DNA of 64,000 nt from the NCBI GenBank assembly GCA_015057705.1, contig SVDU01000006.1, positions 1-64,000 on the forward strand, in the 5' to 3' direction. Position 1 is the stretch's first letter. Every line of letters begins with the position of its first letter. The notes below the pieces were generated by a model that was not told where the DNA came from, ran no database searches, and was given only the letters and a program-made list of their open reading frames with translations. This stretch comes from Paenibacillaceae bacterium. GTDB taxonomy: Bacteria; Bacillota; Clostridia; Lachnospirales; Lachnospiraceae. Positions 53,243 through 64,000 of the stretch are shown here, in pieces. Made by a program: the position numbers and the translations under genes.

Positions 53243-54192
53243 CTATACTTCAACAAAATAATCATTCATAAATTCCTTATACTTTATCACTCTTTCGTCG
53301 TTTGGAGCATACGCATCAAGTTTATCTAATACATTCACCCATAGAAAGTCTTTGTTAGACATAAGCAGTTCCATTGTCTGAATACCATGCTCCACATCAA
53401 AAGCTCTTTCCATATCTTCTTTATAGCCTCGCCTGGCTGCATTAAAAAAATCAGGCTCCGAAAAATACCTCTTATCGGTTTGACCAAACATTATTTTTAT
53501 TATTTGTTCAAATGTTTCACGATAAAATTCTTTTTCAAAATGAGCACCGTTTAAGTTCTCCCATTGTGTTTGATCTCCCATAAAGTATTGAGATAGATCA
53601 ATCACATAAGGATTATACTTTGCTATAATATAATTTTCTAATTCCTGCAATGATTGATTATATCTATCATTAGCCTGATATGGTTGTTTAAAATCTACTG
53701 GTATTTCTTTAATCTCTCCATTTTTAGCTAAATATTTGTCATAATTTTTTCAAAGAATATATCTATGTATGGATACCATATCCATTGAGGAATTGTCATA
53801 AAATTAGCAAGTCCAATACCTGCTTCATACCTTTTAAAAAATTCGTGTGCGCATGTGGCAAATGCAGTTTCTTTATAAACTGCAAAATCATTTTGCATAT
53901 CAAAAAGATCCATAACCAGCCAGTCAGCATCGGATTCCAGTAATAACTTAATGGTGTATTTATTTATGCATTGCTATAATGAACAAAGACGCGTTTTGTC
54001 CCACAGCTCATCAGCTGTAATTTGTAATACCTCTTTTTCAGGAAATGGAGGCGGCATAACAGATAAAGCAATATTCTGTTTATCCAGAAAATAGCCCATT
54101 TCTACATCATCGTGTGCGATTCTATGCCCTGCCTGATTACCGTTAAGCATAGAAATACGTGAAACACAACTTCCTAAAATATTCACTTTCAT
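53243..54192 (-). pseudogene. Broken DUF6270-type gene
   Basis: The frame begins MKVNILGSCVSRISML at 54192, typical of DUF6270 (SGNH-like) proteins, behind AGAGGGA. It meets an in-frame TAG at 53976-53974, then continues in the same frame until a shift in a run of six A (53750-53745 on the minus strand); one extra A restores a single frame to the stop at 53243. Repaired, the product would have about 316 residues. Proteins of this family occur in polysaccharide clusters. The stop and the shift are two independent lesions, so decay is likelier than a sequencing error. Confidence 0.75.
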
Positions 54193-54232: not shown

Positions 54233-55171
54233 TCACTTTTCTATCTCGCTTGCAAAATACTGACCTATTTTAGCAATAAAACCTAATACATCTTGTTTCA
54301 TTGGTTTTGGAAATGTTGATATGACAGGTGCTGTCTCAAAACTTAAAACTTTATTAAATTTAATATTTCTCATCCCTCTGATAAACCCCTCCCAATCTGT
54401 AGAAGACCGATTTTCTCTGTTCTTTGTAAAGGTAAAAGGGATCTGGTGTAAATCAGAGGCTCCGTCATTATCATGAATGTGCAGAACTTTTAATCTTTCC
54501 CCAAGTTCTGTAATAAAGCCCGCAAAATCAATGCCTACCAGATTTGCATGACCCGTATCAAAACAAAAGCCCAAAACTTCAGCATGATATTTTTCATTTA
54601 TGCTGTCTATCCGTTCAACTGCCTTTTTTACGTCACAGCATGGTCCTTCTACGAGATGTCCGCCAATACTGTCGTATAAATTTTCAATACATATTGTTAT
54701 ACCGAGTTCCTTGGCTAATGGAGCAATGGAGTGAATAAATTGCGATGTCTGCTTCCATTCCTCATCTTCTGAACCTAAATACCGCGCTAATTTACAACCA
54801 TGTATTACAATATATTGACAATTAAAAAAAGCACAGACCATCATGCTTTTGGGTGCTACTTCTTTCCATAAATATTCATTCAATTCCTTGCCTGCCATAG
54901 GCACATATATTGGATATGGCATATGCATCTGGCTTATTTTAATTCCACTAGAAGCTGCACCATTCTTATGGGGTAAAAAAAAGTTTTCTAATTCCTGAAT
55001 AGACTTATCAAAGAATGTATTTAACTCCATCTGATATAAAGAGGTATTCATCAGATATGAATTTAAACTAAAATCTGCACAAGTAAATCCTGTATGTTTT
55101 AACATAGAAAACCCTTCTTCCGGGCAATTGTCATTTATGACATTTTTTGTCTGTACACCTATTTGATTCAT
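54233..55171 (-). CDS. Sugar-phosphate isomerase/epimerase-like TIM barrel
   Basis: A 312-residue xylose-isomerase-like TIM barrel (AP endonuclease 2 superfamily). Probable metal ligands are kept: Glu in CIENLYDS, Asp and His in FCFDTGHAN, His in LHIHDNDG and Glu in LSFETAP. Such enzymes isomerise or epimerise sugars or their phosphates; the substrate cannot be told. ATG at 55171 follows GGGAG and lies one base after the stop of the upstream paralogue, so translation is coupled; a longer frame reads into that gene without a better site. Confidence 0.8.
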   Translation of the reverse strand: MNQIGVQTKNVINDNCPEEGFSMLKHTGFTCADFSLNSYLMNTSLYQMELNTFFDKSIQELENFFLPHKNGAASSGIKISQMHMPYPIYVPMAGKELNEYLWKEVAPKSMMVCAFFNCQYIVIHGCKLARYLGSEDEEWKQTSQFIHSIAPLAKELGITICIENLYDSIGGHLVEGPCCDVKKAVERIDSINEKYHAEVLGFCFDTGHANLVGIDFAGFITELGERLKVLHIHDNDGASDLHQIPFTFTKNRENRSSTDWEGFIRGMRNIKFNKVLSFETAPVISTFPKPMKQDVLGFIAKIGQYFASEIEK

Positions 55172-55172
55172 A

Positions 55173-56435
55173 TCATTTGCTCCCAAGTCTGTCAAAAAAA
55201 TAAGATGGCATATACTCGTCATTAAAAAATTCAATATTCTTAATTCCCATGCCATTCAGCTGTTCTTGTATTTCACGATAATAAATATTACAGATAAATA
55301 TACCACAGCCTTCCGGAAGTTCTAAAAGGCTATCCGGGGATCTCACCTCCAAACCGCAGAATTCTGTACCCCATATGCTGCGATTGTTATCACACGTATA
55401 TAATGGAGGATATTTCTCACCATAGCATTTCATAAAGTTACGGCACATATTCCCTGCACCAAAAAGAACAATATGCTTGTATTTTTTCAAAAGATTTTCT
55501 ATTTCAATCTGCCACTGAAAGTAATTTGCCACCGATCTGGCAAGTTGCATCAGTTCTGTCCGAAGAATTGGAGAAAAAGATTTCGCCGTATCACCAAAAC
55601 TCAAAATCAAATGACCATCAAAACCAATATCTCTTAATCCACGAATCAAGCTAAGCCAATCTGTAAGAGGCTGGGATCTGTTCACACAGGTAAATGGCAG
55701 CATGGCATTCTCTGTCTGGCCATCACAATCTCGCAAATTAACTGCTTTTAGCCTGGAGCCCAGATCCAAAACAAAATCATACATGTTCTGTCCGCATAGA
55801 TTACACACACCCACATCCAGGCAAAAGCCAAAACGTTCTTCTCCTACTTCTTTATTTAGTTCATCAATCCACTTTGATGCTGTTTTTCCATTTGAGCAGA
55901 TTCCCCTGATTAAATGACCATTCAAATCCCGACATTGATTTTCTAACAGTATTGTTACATTATGTTCTCTTGCAATACCGGCAAGGTGAAGATAATATTT
56001 TTTATTTACTGCCCACTCATCTTCCGGCTCTATACCGGAAAATAGTGGTCTTATGATAATAGCCTGGCATTTAGCCTCCCTACACACTTTGATGCTCTCC
56101 TCTGCCAGCTGGATCATAAGTTGATTAGATTCAACATGCTTAGAGGCTCTTTCCAGATATGGCGCGTAAGCAAGAGTTGTATGCAGCTGCGTTTGTCTGC
56201 ACTGAACAAGCATCGGTATTAAATCGTGGTACAGTTCGGTTGGATTCCCTGATACACATATTCTTTGATTAATTTTATTTTGACCAACCTTACTGGTCAT
56301 CCTAAGTTCAATTGGGGTACATGCCAGTGATGCGTCAAGCAGCACATCACAAAATCCCGATCTCACAATATCAATTGCACCCTGTCTCGGTCGATCTATA
56401 TCTATAATACCATCTGGAGCGCATATAATATTCAA
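55173..56435 (-). CDS. Degenerate TIM barrel fused to a Rossmann-like domain
   Basis: A 420-residue protein. Residues 1-310 align with the following TIM-barrel gene, but several metal-site residues are changed: CFDTGHAN is CLDVGVCN (206-211), HIH is NLR (233-235) and SFE is SFG (279-281), while Glu165 and Asp207 remain. Catalysis as an isomerase is therefore unlikely. Residues 321-405 form a nucleotide-binding-like unit starting HIVLFGAGNMCRNF and TCDNN. It starts with TTG behind AGAGGTG. A role as regulatory or substrate-channelling partner is inference. Confidence 0.7.
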   Translation of the reverse strand: MNIICAPDGIIDIDRPRQGAIDIVRSGFCDVLLDASLACTPIELRMTSKVGQNKINQRICVSGNPTELYHDLIPMLVQCRQTQLHTTLAYAPYLERASKHVESNQLMIQLAEESIKVCREAKCQAIIIRPLFSGIEPEDEWAVNKKYYLHLAGIAREHNVTILLENQCRDLNGHLIRGICSNGKTASKWIDELNKEVGEERFGFCLDVGVCNLCGQNMYDFVLDLGSRLKAVNLRDCDGQTENAMLPFTCVNRSQPLTDWLSLIRGLRDIGFDGHLILSFGDTAKSFSPILRTELMQLARSVANYFQWQIEIENLLKKYKHIVLFGAGNMCRNFMKCYGEKYPPLYTCDNNRSIWGTEFCGLEVRSPDSLLELPEGCGIFICNIYYREIQEQLNGMGIKNIEFFNDEYMPSYFFDRLGSK

Positions 56436-56463
56436 GTTCTTTCACCTCTTTTCTAATATACTT

Positions 56464-58701
56464 TTATACCAGTTTTTGCTCGATTAATGATTTGATTTTG
56501 GTTGAGCTGGTACCCTCCGTATAAGGAAAAAAAACCATTTCTGCACCGTGTTTCTCCAAAAATTCTTTATCTGCTAGCCAATCTGGATTATCTTTGTAAT
56601 CACTTCCTGAAAATTGGCAGTCGAAATGGTACATTCTATATGCATCTCTGGTTCCACTATAATTTAGAGGTATTTCAACAGCCTCATTCACATATTTACA
56701 GGAACGCACTAACTCTATTCTATCTTCAAACGGAATAAATGGTACTGTTTTTTTATATTTCCTTACACCCTCATCCGTTACCACACCAACAATGAGATGA
56801 TCACACTGCTCTTTTGCTTTTTTAAACATATTCAAATGTCCTATATGAAACAAATCAAACACTCCTGCAATATATCCTGTATGATACTTTTTGGGTAAAG
56901 AATCCTGTCCTATCACAAGATTCTGGATTACCTGCTGTTTTCTGACATATTCTGCATTTTTATCATAGATGCAGTATTCTTCAACTCCCATTTTTCGCAA
57001 TTGATGAACAATTGCAACATAATTCTTGATACAGATAATAATTCTACGTTTCTCCTTTGGCAGATCCAGAATAGTTTCAGGCGGCATAATCTCAATTCCA
57101 TTCAAACTACTTCCCCATTTACGGGCATCATTATCTACAATCCCATAAATATCATACTGCTTCTTAAATTGAGACAGAAAGTATTTCGTAAAATTCCCTG
57201 AACCAAAGAGAACTATCTTCTTTTTCTCTGCATCTTTAAAAATATCTACAAAAATTCTCTGATACTGGGGATTAGAATAATTAATCCTCTGTCTGTTGGT
57301 ATGAACAGTCTCTAGATTCCGCTGATACTTTTCATTAAAGAGTCTTAATTCCCTCTGGTTTCTCAGCTTGTTTATAAATTCCCATGACATACTGATCCAC
57401 AGCTCCAATTTCTCACTCAAACCATACTTTTCATAAAAATAATGTTTGGGAAGAATTGCTTCCATCTCTGGTTCTCCTGCATAAACAATTTCAACTATCC
57501 TGAAAACAATTGCATTGGCTGGATAATTTTCCTCACAAAACTCTTGGTCATAGAAAACATACTTACCATTATCATAAAAACAATTAAGAGGGACCAAATC
57601 CACATATCCCTTTTCCAGTAAAATACCCAATTCTTTTTGCTTCTCTGATGCCTCTATATGGGGCGAAGACTGGAAGATAAAATTCCGGAACCGGTCCATT
57701 TCCAATATAAAACTATCCAAATTTTCTCTTGCCAATCTGCGAAGATGAATCAATGCACTCTCACTGTCTACATAAGGCATACAGTATGAATGATTTATGC
57801 ACTTTCCTTCCAGAATTTCTAGTCCCCGGGACCTTAAATCATTCTCATTGTTTTTAAGTTCTTGCAGTTTATGTCTGCCTTCCTTATACAGTACAAGTTT
57901 CTCCACTGTATGATCATTCCTGATAATCGTAGCCATGGCGTTTTCCCTGCCTCTGTCCATAGAAAGTGTCACATGCCTGACATTCTCAAAGGAATTATCA
58001 TTTGAACATTCGATAAAAAAGGAGTTAGCCATAATATGAAACATTCCGTTTTTAATTATGTCTTTATATAGAAATTCTTCTTCAAGGAAAATGGTATCTG
58101 GAAAATGATACATAGGGAATAATCTTATATCCAATTCTTCTGTAGGAAGATAGTCTTCTGAATAAATTAACTGGGGGAATTCCAAACCTGGAAAAACCGA
58201 ATAAAACTTTCGGTCTTTCCAGCCGGACAAATCCAGCATATTACATATTTCTTCTCTGGAATAATTACGTCCCTGTAAATATTTTCTATCTTCTTTCAAT
58301 ACTTTTCGGTAGTTCTCAATTCCGTCAAAATTACGGTTGGTGAATGGATCCCTGTCGCCGCAAAAATAACGCAATCCGAGTCTATTATCCATACCAAGAA
58401 GCAGTCTTCCATTGTCTTTAAGCAATTCTCTCCACAACGAAAGAGTCTTTACCGGATTGTCAAGGCGTTCTACCATGCCAATTATAACTATATAATCAAA
58501 CGTTCCTCTATATTGCTCCAAAAATGCTTCACATAAAGAGGCCGTTAAGTCTGAGCAAATCACTTCTTTGCATATATCCTGTAAAAATTCATTTATACTG
58601 CTTTCTTTTTCCTCAATATAAAGAACCTTCCCATCGGAAGAAAAATTGTACCAGTTCAGCAATCCTTTGGGCATTTCCCAAATAATTTTATCTGCCTCCA
58701 T
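56464..58701 (-). CDS. Methyltransferase-like / Rossmann / cytidylyltransferase fusion
   Basis: A 745-residue fusion. Residues 1-230 resemble a class I methyltransferase subfamily with LLLGMDNRLGLRYFCGDRDP and FDGIENY, but the SAM-binding glycine loop is lost (KVLYIEEKESS at 25-35). Residues 230-480 are not recognised. Residues 495-580 form a Rossmann-like unit starting KIVLFGSGNFTKYF. Residues 606-740 form a glycerol-3-phosphate/choline-phosphate-type cytidylyltransferase with HIGH (619-622), FEDRIELV and EGTSSTKI. It may make CDP-activated glycerol or a similar group. ATG at 58701 follows GGAGG. Confidence 0.8.
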   Translation of the reverse strand: MEADKIIWEMPKGLLNWYNFSSDGKVLYIEEKESSINEFLQDICKEVICSDLTASLCEAFLEQYRGTFDYIVIIGMVERLDNPVKTLSLWRELLKDNGRLLLGMDNRLGLRYFCGDRDPFTNRNFDGIENYRKVLKEDRKYLQGRNYSREEICNMLDLSGWKDRKFYSVFPGLEFPQLIYSEDYLPTEELDIRLFPMYHFPDTIFLEEEFLYKDIIKNGMFHIMANSFFIECSNDNSFENVRHVTLSMDRGRENAMATIIRNDHTVEKLVLYKEGRHKLQELKNNENDLRSRGLEILEGKCINHSYCMPYVDSESALIHLRRLARENLDSFILEMDRFRNFIFQSSPHIEASEKQKELGILLEKGYVDLVPLNCFYDNGKYVFYDQEFCEENYPANAIVFRIVEIVYAGEPEMEAILPKHYFYEKYGLSEKLELWISMSWEFINKLRNQRELRLFNEKYQRNLETVHTNRQRINYSNPQYQRIFVDIFKDAEKKKIVLFGSGNFTKYFLSQFKKQYDIYGIVDNDARKWGSSLNGIEIMPPETILDLPKEKRRIIICIKNYVAIVHQLRKMGVEEYCIYDKNAEYVRKQQVIQNLVIGQDSLPKKYHTGYIAGVFDLFHIGHLNMFKKAKEQCDHLIVGVVTDEGVRKYKKTVPFIPFEDRIELVRSCKYVNEAVEIPLNYSGTRDAYRMYHFDCQFSGSDYKDNPDWLADKEFLEKHGAEMVFFPYTEGTSSTKIKSLIEQKLV

Positions 58702-58725
58702 CACTTCCTCCATATATATTACCGA

Positions 58726-61266
58726 TTATTCTTTCATTTCCATAACCTTCATCATATATTCATGTACTTTCATTCCACAGGTCCCATCCAGATTGGAGGC
58801 CAGAGTAGACAGTTCCTCAAGTTGTCTGACACGAACCTCTTTCAGCCTGTCCTGAGCCAGTTCTTCCAGAAAGCTTTCAAAAGAGAAGAATTTACTTTCT
58901 CTCCGGAAAAAACCAGACTTTTTTTCTATCTTTTCAAAACCATCTTCCCCGTCTGTCATTTTCCCATAGTCTGCTTTGGTGAGCGTAGGATAAAACAACT
59001 CCCAGGATTCATTCTCCACATGGATGATGGCAGCCGCTTCATCACAATTTCTCTGGACAATCACCTTGTTCTCATCCCATCTGGCTCCAAATTCGCTGGC
59101 CAGGGACCAATCCGGATTATAACCATTCCCCACTTCTTTGGATTTATCCCAAAAGTCTTCTAAAAGAAGAGAAGTCTTTCCGGTTGTTTTATCTAATTTT
59201 ACCATGCAATTAGAAAATCCAGGAACTGTCACGATCCATTTTCCCATACCAATCAGATGTACATGAGGCAAATTCCTGCCAAATATTTTACCGGGCCAAG
59301 AGCGAAAACCTTCCGGCATCGTAAAGGCTCTGACCTTCCCGGAACGTCGGTCCCATCTAATGAGATTTCCGCTGTTTATTTCAGCAAGCCAGATACAGCG
59401 TTCCTCCGCAATAATTCCCGAATAACCATTTCCCTTTTCTCCTACCGGACAGAGCGCATATGTACCGTCTTCCATATGAAAACGCAGAAGGCAATTGGTA
59501 TAGACAGCACTAATCCATATGTCTTTTTCACATACTGAGCAGCGAAATGTAACACCCTGCTTCTCAGCCTCTTCTTTGCCTACATCTTTCCATAATTCTT
59601 CTATGCATTCTGTATGATACTTCCACTTTCCTGTTTCTATATGAAACTCTGCAATGGCTCCTCCCACTGATGGAAGATAGAATACTCTGCCGCCCCATGT
59701 TGCAATCCGATTGAAGCCGGCCACTGTGTCAGAATCCTCCCTTCCAATTAACTCCTGCTTCATGGTTATCAGGTCGAATACGGCGGGGCATCGGGCCAAA
59801 GTTGGAGAAAGAAACAGCTTATTATCTACTTCTGCAAAAAAAGGATATGAGCTGTACCATTTTGGCTGTTTTTCCACACGATCTTTAAAATGAACCATCT
59901 TTGTATTAACATCCATATAAAGAAGGGAATTTAAACGGTTGGTCGTTATCCAGACTTTGTCCTTCTGCCTGAAAATATCTGTCATATGTACCCTATATTT
60001 TTCTTCTTCTGTATAACTATCAGTGATGTAATTATTAAGTATAAAAATCGGTTTTCCCGCAGCTCCAAATAGATTGATTATTGAGGTACTCTCCTCCCCT
60101 ATGTATCCATCTGATATGGCAACTGCCCTTGAGATATCTGAGGTTTCATCTAATACACCAATTTTATTTTCTGTAAAATAGGCCTTAAGGCTGCTGTACG
60201 CTTCCATTAAATGAGGTCGCATGGATATTATGGTTGCTTCCAAAAGAGGATGAGGCCTCCATATAAGGGCTACCTGACTCTGTTGTTTTACTATCTGACA
60301 AATTCTTTTTATTTTCCGAAGATAAATTTCTCCATCCTGTAAAAAGCAGCCAATACTGGTATTGAGCATCAATACCTTTTTTCCTTTTAGCATTGGCTGC
60401 CACTGCACCGGAACGACGCTTCCATTCCGGCATAAGTTAATTACCCGGTCTAGCTTAGGAGAACCAAAAGGAATAATTTTATCGTAGTAATACATACCTT
60501 CACAAAAACTTTTTGCGTATTCTGACTGCACTACCATATAATCCATATACTGATAAACCGGCAGTCCCAAATGATCCTTCGCAATGAATCCTCCTGTAAC
60601 ATAATAGGGCACGTAAACTAATTTTCCTACATATTTTTTCAGCTCTCCGGAAAAATATCTTCTGTTCACTTTGGTGACAAAATTCCAGTCATCATAAGGA
60701 TTATGTATATAAGCAATGTCAGGAAGATTCTGTTCTAATGAATATTTTTGATAAGCGACAACCGGAACATATTCCGGGAATTTAGATCCATCATAATGTT
60801 CTACCCATTGGTTTTTATTGGCATCAAATTCATAATAGGGTATGGGAATTACATAGCACTCACAGCGTTTATCTTTTTGTGCAGCAAGCCAAATGCTCTC
60901 CAGACTGTCCCACATGGAAGCTTTATAGGGCAAAAATACCACTTGATAGTTTTCCAATATATCTGCAAGAAATGTTTTTATGCGCTCCGTGAGATTACTT
61001 AAAACCCTCACGTTTCTTTCACCTGCTGATTCCTGAGATTGGCTTATCAAAAAGGCCTCTTCACAGTATTCTTCCAGCAAAGAAATAATTTCTTCATGAT
61101 CAAAAGTATCACTTTCCAGTGTCTCCCCAATGGTAATCGCCGCCTGTTGGCAATCTGTTAGCACTGAAATAATTTGAACTTGATCAGTTAAATTGACAAG
61201 TAAGCTTTGCATCTGTTCTACAGAGTCCAATAAATCCCTAAGCTGTTTCTTGATATATGTACGCAT
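58726..61266 (-). CDS. CDP-glycerol-transferase-like protein with propeller-like tail
   Basis: An 846-residue protein. A coiled N-terminus (1-75) precedes a GT-B-like domain (about 90-420) related to CDP-glycerol glycerophosphotransferases, with IPFGSPKLDR, ALIWRPHPLL and DGYIGEESTSI motifs. From about 430 to 760 short repeats built from Trp/Leu strand segments (VWITTNRLNSLLYMD and similar) suggest a beta-propeller. No membrane segment is seen. It may move a glycerol-phosphate-like group onto a surface polymer or protein using the product of the neighbouring cytidylyltransferase. Confidence 0.7.
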   Translation of the reverse strand: MRTYIKKQLRDLLDSVEQMQSLLVNLTDQVQIISVLTDCQQAAITIGETLESDTFDHEEIISLLEEYCEEAFLISQSQESAGERNVRVLSNLTERIKTFLADILENYQVVFLPYKASMWDSLESIWLAAQKDKRCECYVIPIPYYEFDANKNQWVEHYDGSKFPEYVPVVAYQKYSLEQNLPDIAYIHNPYDDWNFVTKVNRRYFSGELKKYVGKLVYVPYYVTGGFIAKDHLGLPVYQYMDYMVVQSEYAKSFCEGMYYYDKIIPFGSPKLDRVINLCRNGSVVPVQWQPMLKGKKVLMLNTSIGCFLQDGEIYLRKIKRICQIVKQQSQVALIWRPHPLLEATIISMRPHLMEAYSSLKAYFTENKIGVLDETSDISRAVAISDGYIGEESTSIINLFGAAGKPIFILNNYITDSYTEEEKYRVHMTDIFRQKDKVWITTNRLNSLLYMDVNTKMVHFKDRVEKQPKWYSSYPFFAEVDNKLFLSPTLARCPAVFDLITMKQELIGREDSDTVAGFNRIATWGGRVFYLPSVGGAIAEFHIETGKWKYHTECIEELWKDVGKEEAEKQGVTFRCSVCEKDIWISAVYTNCLLRFHMEDGTYALCPVGEKGNGYSGIIAEERCIWLAEINSGNLIRWDRRSGKVRAFTMPEGFRSWPGKIFGRNLPHVHLIGMGKWIVTVPGFSNCMVKLDKTTGKTSLLLEDFWDKSKEVGNGYNPDWSLASEFGARWDENKVIVQRNCDEAAAIIHVENESWELFYPTLTKADYGKMTDGEDGFEKIEKKSGFFRRESKFFSFESFLEELAQDRLKEVRVRQLEELSTLASNLDGTCGMKVHEYMMKVMEMKE

Positions 61267-61292
61267 GCTTTTTTTATTCCCCTTTTGTATTC

Positions 61293-62660
61293 TTACACAT
61301 CCTTTTTCCCATCTTCATGCAGTTCTAAAATAGTTTCTAACAAAGCTGCTTTTTCTGGCATTCTTTGCAGTAAATAAACTGAATCAGGTGAAATACCAGA
61401 AACTCTTAACTGGTCTAAAATCTCCTGAGGCTTATGTCTATTTGCGATTACATAGAATGCATTTTTATGTTTTAATACCGTTTCTTTTGGTTCTTCCACC
61501 AATAAACCACGGACTTCTCTGTTAATCTTATTTATATCGTTATCACAAATTGCAACCACATTCCCTTTTAAAAAAATATAGTTCAGTTCTGCCAAATCTT
61601 CTCCATATTTACCTGCTCCAAATATCACGATTTCTTCTTTTTCTCTGAAGATTTTCGCTATCTGAAGAAGATCTTTTTTTAACATTGTTCTATCTTGATC
61701 AAATTTATGTGTTTCCCCAATATCTCCACATAATATCTTCACTTCTCTCACCTGTTCATAATTTAATGTTTTAAAATATGAATCTTCATTCCCGAATTCA
61801 AATTCCATTTCTTCATGAATTTCCTCTATGAATTTTTTACGAAATTCCAGCAAAAGTCTTTTATAATTCCAAAAGTACGAAATGAGCTTCTTGTTTTTAT
61901 AAAAGTTAGTAAAATCCTCTCCGTTAAGGTGATTAAGCTGCATTTGTTTTTTTAACCAACAAAATTCATCTATAATACAGCTGTATTTTTTCTGTGATTT
62001 CACCGAAGAATTGTTGTTATCGAGCCGATAATGATATAGCTGATGATCTGAAAAATAAACCTTTTTGGAAAGCAACGTTGCCAATACGGAAAATCCTGTA
62101 TCCTGATAAGAAGCTCCCTGAGTCTCATTTAAATATAAATGGTTACTAATTAAAAAATCCTTTTGATAAAGTCCAGCCCATATACTGTATCCAACATAAT
62201 ATCTGATTTCCGGTTCTTCCTGCACGTTTATAACACAATTATATCGGGATTGATTTGCTAAATGTTTAAATTCAGACTCAATCCTTCTTCCACCGATATC
62301 AATAAACTTTTTGTAATCTGCTTTTATAAAATCCACCTGGTATTTCTCTGCCGTTTCATATAAGATCTGCAACATATCACTTCTGATATAATCGTCCGAT
62401 TCCACAATTGCAATATAAGTTCCCTGAGCTAAGGAAATTCCCTTGTTAATCTTATAACCATAACTTGAATTACTGTCATACAAATAGTGAACTCGTCTAT
62501 CATTTTCAGCATATGATCCAATAATATTTGAAGTTGCATCAGAACCACTATCAATACATATAATTTCAATTTCCTGCAATGTCTGATTAATTATACTATC
62601 CATGCATTCTTTTATATATTTTTCAGAGTTATGTAATGGTAAAATAACGGTAATCTTCAT
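61293..62660 (-). CDS. GT2 glycosyltransferase with C-terminal Rossmann-like domain
   Basis: A 455-residue protein. The GT-A fold of family 2 occupies about 1-220 with VILPLHNSEKYI, the DxD-like ESDDY (87-91) and YQDTGF. A helical linker follows, and residues 343-433 form the Rossmann-like unit with EIVIFGAGKYGEDL and ICDND, as in its neighbours. The sugar donor and acceptor are unknown. ATG lies behind AGAGGAG. Confidence 0.85.
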   Translation of the reverse strand: MKITVILPLHNSEKYIKECMDSIINQTLQEIEIICIDSGSDATSNIIGSYAENDRRVHYLYDSNSSYGYKINKGISLAQGTYIAIVESDDYIRSDMLQILYETAEKYQVDFIKADYKKFIDIGGRRIESEFKHLANQSRYNCVINVQEEPEIRYYVGYSIWAGLYQKDFLISNHLYLNETQGASYQDTGFSVLATLLSKKVYFSDHQLYHYRLDNNNSSVKSQKKYSCIIDEFCWLKKQMQLNHLNGEDFTNFYKNKKLISYFWNYKRLLLEFRKKFIEEIHEEMEFEFGNEDSYFKTLNYEQVREVKILCGDIGETHKFDQDRTMLKKDLLQIAKIFREKEEIVIFGAGKYGEDLAELNYIFLKGNVVAICDNDINKINREVRGLLVEEPKETVLKHKNAFYVIANRHKPQEILDQLRVSGISPDSVYLLQRMPEKAALLETILELHEDGKKDV

Positions 62661-62683
62661 CTTTTTACTCCTCTAATTTAACT

Positions 62684-63877
62684 TTATTCCAAACATATTG
62701 GTGATTTCCAGACTACCTTTTGCTCATTTATCCCCAATTCTTTAAGATTTTCTTTAATTTCTAAAACAGTTTTTTCATTTTTAACTGCTATTACTACATA
62801 ATCAAACTCCATGTCTCTTAATATATCAGGTGATTGAATTATATGATCTTCGGTCATCAGATTTGTGTAATTTTGATCCACCCACCCATGTAATTTTGCA
62901 TATCTGCTTTTTATCAGATTTTCTTCATATGATGCCCCAACATTTCCTCCACCGTATATTACTACACTGCTATCTTTTTCAATTAATTCAAACGGGAAAA
63001 GATACTTGGGTCTTTCTGGTAGAATATCAAATACACTTTTTATAGCCCAAAATAAAAATATTTTTGTATATGCTTTCACCTGTGTTTCCGTTTGGCTCCA
63101 AATACCAAACTCCAAAAACTTTTTCCTCATATAATGATAAAACTTATAAATCTTTTGAAAAGAGTCGATATTGTTATTCTGCGTCAAAGAATTAGAACGA
63201 GCTACATAATGATACCAACTTCTGTCAAGTATCATTATCTTTGTAGCTTTCGTAATAAATATATAAGTAATTGCAGCATCATCTCCCAAAACAATATTTT
63301 CGTCTAAATCAGCGCAAACTTTTTTCAACAATTCCACTTTATAAATTTTATTTGACATAGATGGAGTAATAGCCCTCTGTTTTGTTTGCATATCATACAT
63401 CATGCAAGGAATTATCTTATCATTTATATCCTCACACTCATATAATCCAGGAGGTATTTTATCAATCTCATAAATAACATTTTTGGGGGTTTCTATAGTG
63501 AGACCGGATGTAATCATATCCGGATTATATTCTGCATACGCAGCCATCATACAAAAATACATATCAGGCTCTATCCAGTCATCACTATCTACAAAAGTTA
63601 TCAATTTACCATAAGCCAATTGAACACCCAGATTTCTTGCTGCAACTGGTCCATTATTATTTATATGTATAACACGTATTCTATCGTCCTTATTTGAAAA
63701 TTCATCACAGAATTTCCCCGAATCATCTGTAGAACCATCATTAATTAAAATAATATCTAATTTATTATATTTCTGATAAATAATACTATTTATACATTTT
63801 TCCAGATACTGTGCAGTGTTATAAACAGGAACCACTACAGTCAATAATTCATTTATAAAAACATCTGTGTTGTACAC
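62684..63877 (-). CDS. GT2 glycosyltransferase with C-terminal Rossmann-like domain
   Basis: A 397-residue protein. The GT2 domain (about 10-220) contains TVVVPVYNTAQYLEKCI, NDGSTDDSG and the DxD motif DSDD (97-100). Residues about 303-390 form a Rossmann-like unit with SSVVIYGGGNVGASYEE and WVDQN. The GTG at 63877 is chosen since the GT2 fold should begin close to the start and AGAGG lies upstream, though 12 bases away; another GTG at 63922 has no site. The neighbour at 61293 has the same two-part design. Confidence 0.8.
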   Translation of the reverse strand: MYNTDVFINELLTVVVPVYNTAQYLEKCINSIIYQKYNKLDIILINDGSTDDSGKFCDEFSNKDDRIRVIHINNNGPVAARNLGVQLAYGKLITFVDSDDWIEPDMYFCMMAAYAEYNPDMITSGLTIETPKNVIYEIDKIPPGLYECEDINDKIIPCMMYDMQTKQRAITPSMSNKIYKVELLKKVCADLDENIVLGDDAAITYIFITKATKIMILDRSWYHYVARSNSLTQNNNIDSFQKIYKFYHYMRKKFLEFGIWSQTETQVKAYTKIFLFWAIKSVFDILPERPKYLFPFELIEKDSSVVIYGGGNVGASYEENLIKSRYAKLHGWVDQNYTNLMTEDHIIQSPDILRDMEFDYVVIAVKNEKTVLEIKENLKELGINEQKVVWKSPICLE

Positions 63878-63912
63878 TTTTTTAGTATTCCTCTCTTTAA
63901 ATAAATATATCA

Positions 63913-64000
63913 CTAAAACCACAATTCAGAGAATTCTAAACGTTTTGAAAAGCGCCTTCTGCACATTATTTCCACTTCTTTTGCATTTTCAACTCTTAAC
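63913..64000 (-). CDS. Possible 3' end of a gene cut by the window edge
   Basis: Only one minus-strand frame is open from the edge to a TAG at 63915-63913, giving a basic 28-residue tail ending SKRLEFSELWF. It is followed by a ribosome site and the GT2 gene, as expected inside an operon. The segment is too short for identification and could be open by chance. Confidence 0.3.
   Translation of the reverse strand, partial: LRVENAKEVEIMCRRRFSKRLEFSELWF

What the first reader, a model, noticed from the sequence alone, without database searches (positions are those of the whole stretch)
55173..63877. One Rossmann-like module fused to four different enzyme types in a single cluster
Four of the five intact glycan-cluster genes between 55173 and 63877 carry a unit of about 85 residues starting with a strand plus (F/Y)G(A/S/G)G loop, then a (V/C)D(N/Q) strand, then a (D/E)-Y/I-x-V-I-x-(A/C) strand. 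It follows a degenerate TIM barrel, lies between a methyltransferase-like and a cytidylyltransferase domain, and ends two GT2 enzymes. Similar folds precede acyltransferase domains in sugar-modification proteins. Its repeated use beside each enzyme suggests a shared ligand, a nucleotide sensor or a docking unit that assembles the cluster's proteins into one complex. The module and its spread are seen in the sequence; the shared role is inference.
Basis: partly seen in the sequence, partly recalled or inferred. Interest (0 to 1): 0.75.

Follow-up and report, generated by a model that had tools for sequence, protein, structure and literature searches.

The report
Rossmann add-on shared by glycan enzymes
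A small nucleotide-pocket protein domain has been attached to many enzymes of a sugar-building gene island that tracks with bacterial flagella, even to a degenerate copy of an enzyme whose intact twin sits next door, which suggests that it regulates or assembles the pathway rather than taking part in one reaction.

Summary
The four units are one homologous ~97-residue Rossmann-type domain; profiles built without the same partner type still find each at E 6e-25 to 4e-14, against 0.017 for the best other ORF. Three more proteins just past the window carry it: 7 of 19 ORFs of one flagellin-flanked island. In 69 related loci 444 of 1079 ORFs carry it, on 24 Pfam families, at either end or in the middle. 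Its nearest relatives are NeuD/PglD N-domains, Rex and 3NKL, so it is a variant of a known fold. Unexpected: in 46 of 56 regions with any TIM barrel, an intact barrel without the module sits beside a degenerate barrel that carries it, where the module is far better conserved than the barrel (74% vs 47%). Thirteen loci encode the module almost alone behind a hydrophobic segment. The base-reading Asp of UDP-binding relatives is nearly absent; DN prevails. I favour a nucleotide-gated assembly or regulatory module; that role is inferred. One ligand for all is unlikely: 89 of 477 modules lack the ribose Asp.

The parts
55203..55487 (-). module 1 (C-terminal, on degenerate TIM barrel; GAGNM loop, DNN after strand 2)
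55500..56435 (-). pseudo-TIM barrel (xylose-isomerase-like, PF01261), aligned active-site set REDVNRS instead of HEDHHHE
54233..55177 (-). neighbouring intact TIM barrel without module (HEDHHHE)
56941..57231 (-). module 2 (internal, between middle domain and cytidylyltransferase)
56464..58713 (-). 749-aa protein: methyltransferase-like domain without GxGxG, unassigned middle domain, module 2, glycerol-3-phosphate-cytidylyltransferase-like domain; marker used to find the islands
58726..61266 (-). 846-aa protein without module
61353..61646 (-). module 3 (C-terminal, on GT2)
61293..62660 (-). GT2 glycosyltransferase with C-terminal module 3
62696..62983 (-). module 4 (C-terminal, on GT2)
62684..63922 (-). 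GT2 glycosyltransferase with C-terminal module 4

Best explanation
The unit is an autonomous Rossmann-type nucleotide-pocket domain of the NeuD/PglD-N / Rex group that has become a common add-on of the enzymes of one glycan island. Shown: it is one family, it sits on many unrelated enzymes, it is more constrained than the barrel in a degenerate TIM protein, and its conserved residues favour the nucleotide pocket. Inferred: it works as a nucleotide-dependent assembly or regulatory module. A nucleotide produced or used by the pathway (UDP/UMP, or perhaps CDP/CMP where the pair is DN) would bind the DN-class modules and set their contacts with other pathway enzymes or control the attached enzyme. 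The intact TIM enzyme would obtain its module in trans by pairing with the pseudo-TIM, and the membrane-anchored stand-alone copies would hold part of the machinery at the membrane.
For: One family. 24 Pfam partner families, with the module at the N end, C end or middle. In 46 of 56 non-duplicate regions with any TIM an intact module-less TIM lies next to a degenerate module-bearing TIM, from 149 bp overlap to 187 bp gap; all 55 module-less TIM copies found keep HEDHHHE (three duplicate loci included). 48 pseudo-TIMs form one group, support 100/100. In 44 pseudo-TIM proteins the module is 74% and the barrel 47% identical on average, module above barrel in 99.8% of 946 pairs; columns conserved at 95% or more: 40 of 96 in the module, 38 of 300 in the barrel. 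Conserved module columns favour the strand-end pocket: 15 of 24 vs 25 of 72, and 8 of 24 vs 4 of 73 in the 749-aa family. Thirteen of 15 listed stand-alone copies carry an N-terminal hydrophobic segment (KD17 1.75-2.81; above 1.6 in 1.9% of 486 other module proteins). Precedents, passages read: the WbaP accessory domain carries most dimer contacts, binds uridine nucleotides and is linked to UMP inhibition (PMC10942596); models place two EpsW regulators beside the cytoplasmic part of the related EpsZ dimer (PMC12802240); the PglD-type N-domain binds UDP through Asp-Asp (PMC8040287).
Against: No complex was modelled and no ligand docked. Modules follow their partner enzyme (34.5% identical across islands) and inside an island different-partner modules are barely more alike than expected (20.9% against 20.7% in shuffles, reached by 5 of 300), so nothing shows a common co-evolving interface. 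89 of 477 modules lack the ribose Asp, 64 of them as VS or VT, 23 of these with an acidic residue one place later. In four genomes the module sits on an intact TIM; three islands have only the intact TIM and three only the pseudo-TIM. The pocket was defined by me from the models' strands, and its p values (0.03, 0.001) are uncorrected. Module-bearing GT2 enzymes are mostly intact (a loose DxD pattern in 111 of 117 readable of 129), so a paired pseudoenzyme is seen for TIM only.
Confidence: 0.42

Rival explanations
1. Each module is a substrate-binding half-site in cis: it holds the nucleotide of an NDP-sugar or CDP-polyol for its own enzyme, as the N-domain of PglD does.
For: Nearest relatives include NeuD/PglD N-domains; pocket columns conserved; modules follow their partner enzyme.
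Against: Present on a degenerate TIM and almost alone behind a hydrophobic segment; partners include enzymes with their own donor site (GT2, GT4) and types with no obvious NDP substrate (radical SAM, Asn synthase); linear position differs among partners.
Confidence: 0.25
2. The module docks the enzymes onto a common protein substrate such as flagellin, which the island's enzymes would modify one after another in the cytoplasm.
For: The window island lies between flagellar basal-body genes and flagellin; flagellin in 49 of 50 island genomes, against 62 of 120 in the family at large.
Against: Conservation favours the nucleotide pocket; enzymes acting on small molecules (TIM, cytidylyltransferase) carry it; flagellar genes lie within the fetched flank in 4 of 69 loci only; related genomes share flagella by descent.
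Confidence: 0.12
3. The module is a Rex-like NAD(H) redox sensor.
For: Rex is among the nearest solved relatives (6.8e-10) and by hhalign (1.5e-5 to 2e-12).
Against: The residue after the Asp is Asn in 255 of 388, not the Ile of most Rex controls; the context is glycan synthesis; no Rex DNA-binding domain was matched in the window proteins.
Confidence: 0.06
4. The units are ordinary or vestigial parts of the neighbouring enzymes without a role of their own.
For: The sequences are divergent (27% mean column identity in A8) and some lack pocket residues.
Against: Stronger constraint than the attached barrel; same family on 24 Pfam families; separate domain in both models.
Confidence: 0.06

Closest known systems
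NeuD/PglD N-terminal domain (PF17836, TIGR03570)
   Same: Same Rossmann-type core, GxG loop, Asp after strand 2; profile E 5e-7 to 2e-12; 13 of 55 sampled modules match PF17836 at E <= 0.01; glycan context
   Different: No left-handed beta-helix in the window proteins; the second, uracil-reading Asp is almost never present (1 of 388)
C2185-like N-terminal domain (PF22674)
   Same: 8 of 55 sampled modules match (best 1.7e-16); above cut-off in a DUF4422, a DUF1919 and a GT4 fusion
   Different: Not listed for the TIM or 749-aa proteins of the window
CoA_binding_3 (PF13727) domain of WbaP-type transferases; 3NKL
   Same: 3NKL is the best solved match (1.4e-10) and WbaP chains match at 4e-4 (that 3NKL belongs to this group is recalled); an accessory domain that dimerises and binds uridine nucleotides (PMC10942596, passages read)
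   Different: Controls have DD in 21 of 22 readable rows of 30 loci; weaker profile match (E 0.02 to 1.5e-5, only 6 control sequences usable)
Rex C-terminal NAD(H) domain
   Same: Solved matches 6.8e-10, hhalign up to 2e-12, same D..K.G..G..V run
   Different: Rex is a repressor; here the partners are enzymes; the residue after the Asp differs

Membership tests
NeuD/PglD N-terminal domain group | Rossmann-type core with GxG loop and Asp after strand 2 | tested here: met
   G11 98%, G13 97%, D35 81% of 496 modules; models; hhalign
NeuD/PglD N-terminal domain group | Asp-Asp pair, the second reading uracil | tested here: not met
   DD in 1 of the 388 modules with D35; roles of the pair from passages of PMC8040287. 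The NeuD controls themselves have an acidic second residue in only 7 of 11 (by eye)
NeuD/PglD acetyltransferase (whole protein) | C-terminal left-handed beta-helix | tested here: not met
   No such domain in the four window proteins
C2185-like_N (PF22674) | score above the Pfam cut-off | tested here: not met
   62684-63922: 22.4 bits against 27; the other three window proteins not listed. Met by three other members
CoA_binding_3 (PF13727) | accessory cytoplasmic domain that dimerises and binds uridine nucleotides | not testable with these tools
   needs protein; PF13727 not listed for the window proteins
Rex | N-terminal DNA-binding domain before the NAD(H) domain | tested here: not met
   Rex models match only the module region; the partners are enzymes
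Xylose-isomerase-like TIM enzymes (55173-56435) | metal-binding and catalytic residues | tested here: not met
   REDVNRS against HEDHHHE, 5 of 7 changed (which are metal ligands is recalled); fold kept, best PDB matches are ketose 3-epimerases

The most novel reading that the evidence does not exclude
A general snap-on module turns separate glycan enzymes into one nucleotide-gated complex. It reads cytidine rather than uridine nucleotides (Asp-Asp changed to Asp-Asn), and a dedicated pseudoenzyme exists to bring it to a catalytic partner that lacks it, while membrane-anchored stand-alone copies serve as the scaffold.
Probability: 0.2. Interest if true: 0.85.

Novelty: new variant of a known kind. 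Interest (0 to 1): 0.6.

Why it matters
How bacteria coordinate many glycan enzymes is an open question. Here one small domain recurs on many enzymes of an island and is kept, better conserved than the barrel, in a protein whose barrel has lost most of its active-site residues. If it gates or assembles the pathway, it offers a testable handle on glycan metabolons and on the common but poorly understood Rossmann accessory domains of glycan enzymes.

Tried and rejected
Single-module phmmer against the PDB found nothing useful; profiles were needed. The middle domain of the 749-aa protein looks kinase-like to me from a D-x4-N...DxE pattern (recalled motif; a strict regular expression hits 20 of 49), but Pfam and a PDB profile search found nothing; not claimed. 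Homogenisation of modules inside islands was tested: the excess is 0.2 points. G012 and the C14 locus of G000 are counted in the 504 and in the 75 regions but are not islands by the 749-aa marker. Of 97 partner clusters 45 were scanned with Pfam; 52 were not, 18 of these short ORFs under 230 aa. Of the 40 representatives had no Pfam match. Some of the 24 families overlap (Gly_transf_sug and Caps_synth). Three short module ORFs cut by a locus end were left out of the stand-alone list. In one search only 10 of 12 NeuD, 6 of 30 PF13727 and 12 of 12 Rex loci gave usable control sequences; rows from other ORFs of the same loci were ignored. Literature searches (two returned nothing) listed no description of this module in the open-licence library; subscription papers were not searched. 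Of papers, passages were read of PMC10942596, PMC12802240 and PMC8040287; all others were seen as listings only. Recalled, not from a call: the metal-ligand roles in ketose epimerases, the base-reading argument for Asn versus Asp, the flagellar gene names other than flagellin, and the names hexapeptide transferase, SGNH and motility accessory factor for unscanned partners.

Full report
WHAT IS THERE. Genes 55173-56435, 56464-58713, 58726-61266, 61293-62660 and 62684-63922 (minus strand) follow flagellar basal-body genes (FliG, FliF, FliE and FlgB/C are my names from the sequences). Four of the five carry a ~97-residue unit. The island goes on past the window to a flagellin gene at 79588-80874 in continued coordinates, and three further proteins carry the unit at their N ends: 64974-66179 (Methyltransf_24), 66312-67697 (GT4) and 69500-70318 (no clear family). 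That makes 7 of the 19 ORFs of at least 150 aa between 54233 and 79499.

IS IT ONE FAMILY. The six other copies are 19-33% identical to the first. An HMM separates the seven (E <= 2.4e-15) from the other ORFs of 100 kb (best 1100). To lessen circularity, HMMs were trained without the same partner type and without the window genome: the four window units score 6.1e-25, 4.7e-24, 7.9e-15 and 3.6e-14, and the best non-module ORF 0.017 (the training members had been picked by the earlier HMM). Profile-profile comparison of seven partner types gives E 1.3e-10 to 5e-26 in all 21 pairs. AlphaFold2 models of 55173-56435 (pLDDT 92.1, pTM 0.90, 48 sequences) and 56464-58713 (90.3, 0.84, 49 sequences) show the unit as a separate domain with the same order of strands and helices, next to the TIM barrel and between the middle and cytidylyltransferase domains. 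The GT2 proteins were not modelled.

WHERE IT OCCURS. The 749-aa protein found 69 loci, mostly Lachnospiraceae, with some Selenomonadaceae, Veillonellaceae and Spirochaetaceae records. In them 444 of 1079 ORFs carry the module; with the same-genus regions it is 504 proteins, 485 after removing duplicates. The 73 non-duplicate islands hold 1 to 11 copies each as fetched. In the window genome 7 of the 8 copies at E <= 1e-9 are in this island. Outside, dense clusters are rare: among 120 family genomes 27 have a match at E <= 1e-10, and all but the window genome have at most 4; in a phylum sample of 149 one more genome has 7 (some matches there look like Rex by length). Partners of 40 scanned representatives plus the window and L010 cover 24 Pfam families: GT2, GT4, GT8, GT11, GT90, GT92, GT-D, WbsX, RgpF, Gly_transf_sug, Caps_synth, DUF4422, DUF5672, DUF1919, CDP-glycerol phosphotransferase, LicD, four methyltransferase types, radical SAM, Asn synthase, TIM barrel and cytidylyltransferase (5 of 40 without a match; 52 of 97 partner clusters not scanned). 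Placement is C-terminal on GT2 and TIM, N-terminal on most others and internal in the 749-aa protein.

FLAGELLA. Flagellin was found in 49 of 50 island genomes (50 of the 66 non-duplicate loci given), against 62 of 120 family genomes. Flagellar genes (five queries) lie within the fetched flank in only 4 of the 69 loci. The island thus tracks with flagella, but a flagellin glycan is inferred.

THE PSEUDOENZYME PAIR. The TIM barrel of 55173-56435 has lost 5 of 7 conserved active-site positions (REDVNRS instead of HEDHHHE). The next gene, 54233-55177, keeps them and has no module. All 55 module-less TIM copies keep the set; module-bearing ones are degenerate except in four genomes (three duplicate loci included). 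In 46 of 56 non-duplicate regions with any TIM both lie side by side, overlapping by up to 149 bp or separated by up to 187 bp. 48 pseudo-TIMs form one group at 100/100; some long branches make inner placement unsure. In 44 pseudo-TIM proteins the module is 74% and the barrel 47% identical on average. Selection has thus kept the module more tightly than the barrel it is attached to.

STAND-ALONE COPIES. Thirteen short ORFs of 156-171 aa hold the module with a linker behind an N-terminal hydrophobic segment; two further listed short ORFs lack the segment. The same linker and module end WbsX, GT4 and Asn-synthase fusions.

THE POCKET. G11, G13 and D35 are 98, 97 and 81% conserved in 496 modules. 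In PglD-type enzymes the first Asp binds the ribose and the second the uracil (PMC8040287, passages). Here the pair is DN in all 53 TIM and all 73 749-aa modules, and DD in 1 of the 388 with D35. PF13727 controls have DD in 21 of 22 readable rows of 30 loci, NeuD controls an acidic second residue in 7 of 11, Rex in none of 12 (counted by eye). 89 of 477 modules have no Asp there, 64 of them VS or VT, mostly on GT2 and RgpF; 23 of these 64 have D or E one place later. One ligand for all modules is therefore unlikely. Conserved columns favour the pocket.

HOW IT MAY WORK. Three facts speak for a role beyond the attached enzyme: the pseudoenzyme carrier, the anchored stand-alone copies and the range of partners. 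The pocket speaks for a nucleotide. [quoted passage not shown] I therefore favour a nucleotide-gated assembly or regulatory module (0.42), before a cis substrate site (0.25) and flagellin docking (0.12). Against it: no complex was tested, and modules in one island are barely more alike than shuffled ones (20.9% against 20.7%, reached by 5 of 300).

NOVELTY. The fold and its use in glycan enzymes are known. The breadth of partners in one island, the pseudoenzyme pairing and the DN signature were not met in my searches (open-licence papers only). I rate it a new variant of a known kind.

Noticed in passing
window 56464-58713: The methyltransferase-like N-domain of the 749-aa protein shows no GxGxG in residues 16-70 in 48 of 49 orthologues, so it may be a second pseudoenzyme; the middle domain has no assigned family.
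   Followed up: partly
L010:3917-5503 (continued coordinates 67917-69503): A GT2 fused to a DUF6270 domain, without the module.
   Followed up: no
window 53243-53650: A 135-aa ORF between the flagellar genes and the island with no Pfam or NCBIfam match; it may be the end of a broken gene.
   Followed up: no
L106:16399-18348, L085:3336-5873, L097:5459-8641, L066:7686-9926: Proteins with two modules, on LicD, GT8 plus GT2, CDP-glycerol transferase plus GT4, and capsule transferase plus FkbM.
   Followed up: partly
L117:3180-5261: Asparagine synthase fused to the module.
   Followed up: no
G000:C14:135020-135295 (L055): One further module of the window genome, at the N end of a 391-aa protein that looks FkbM-like, outside the island.
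   Followed up: no
A8 modules: Phage family phrog_24523 of unknown function matches 6 of 55 sampled modules (best 1e-5).
   Followed up: no
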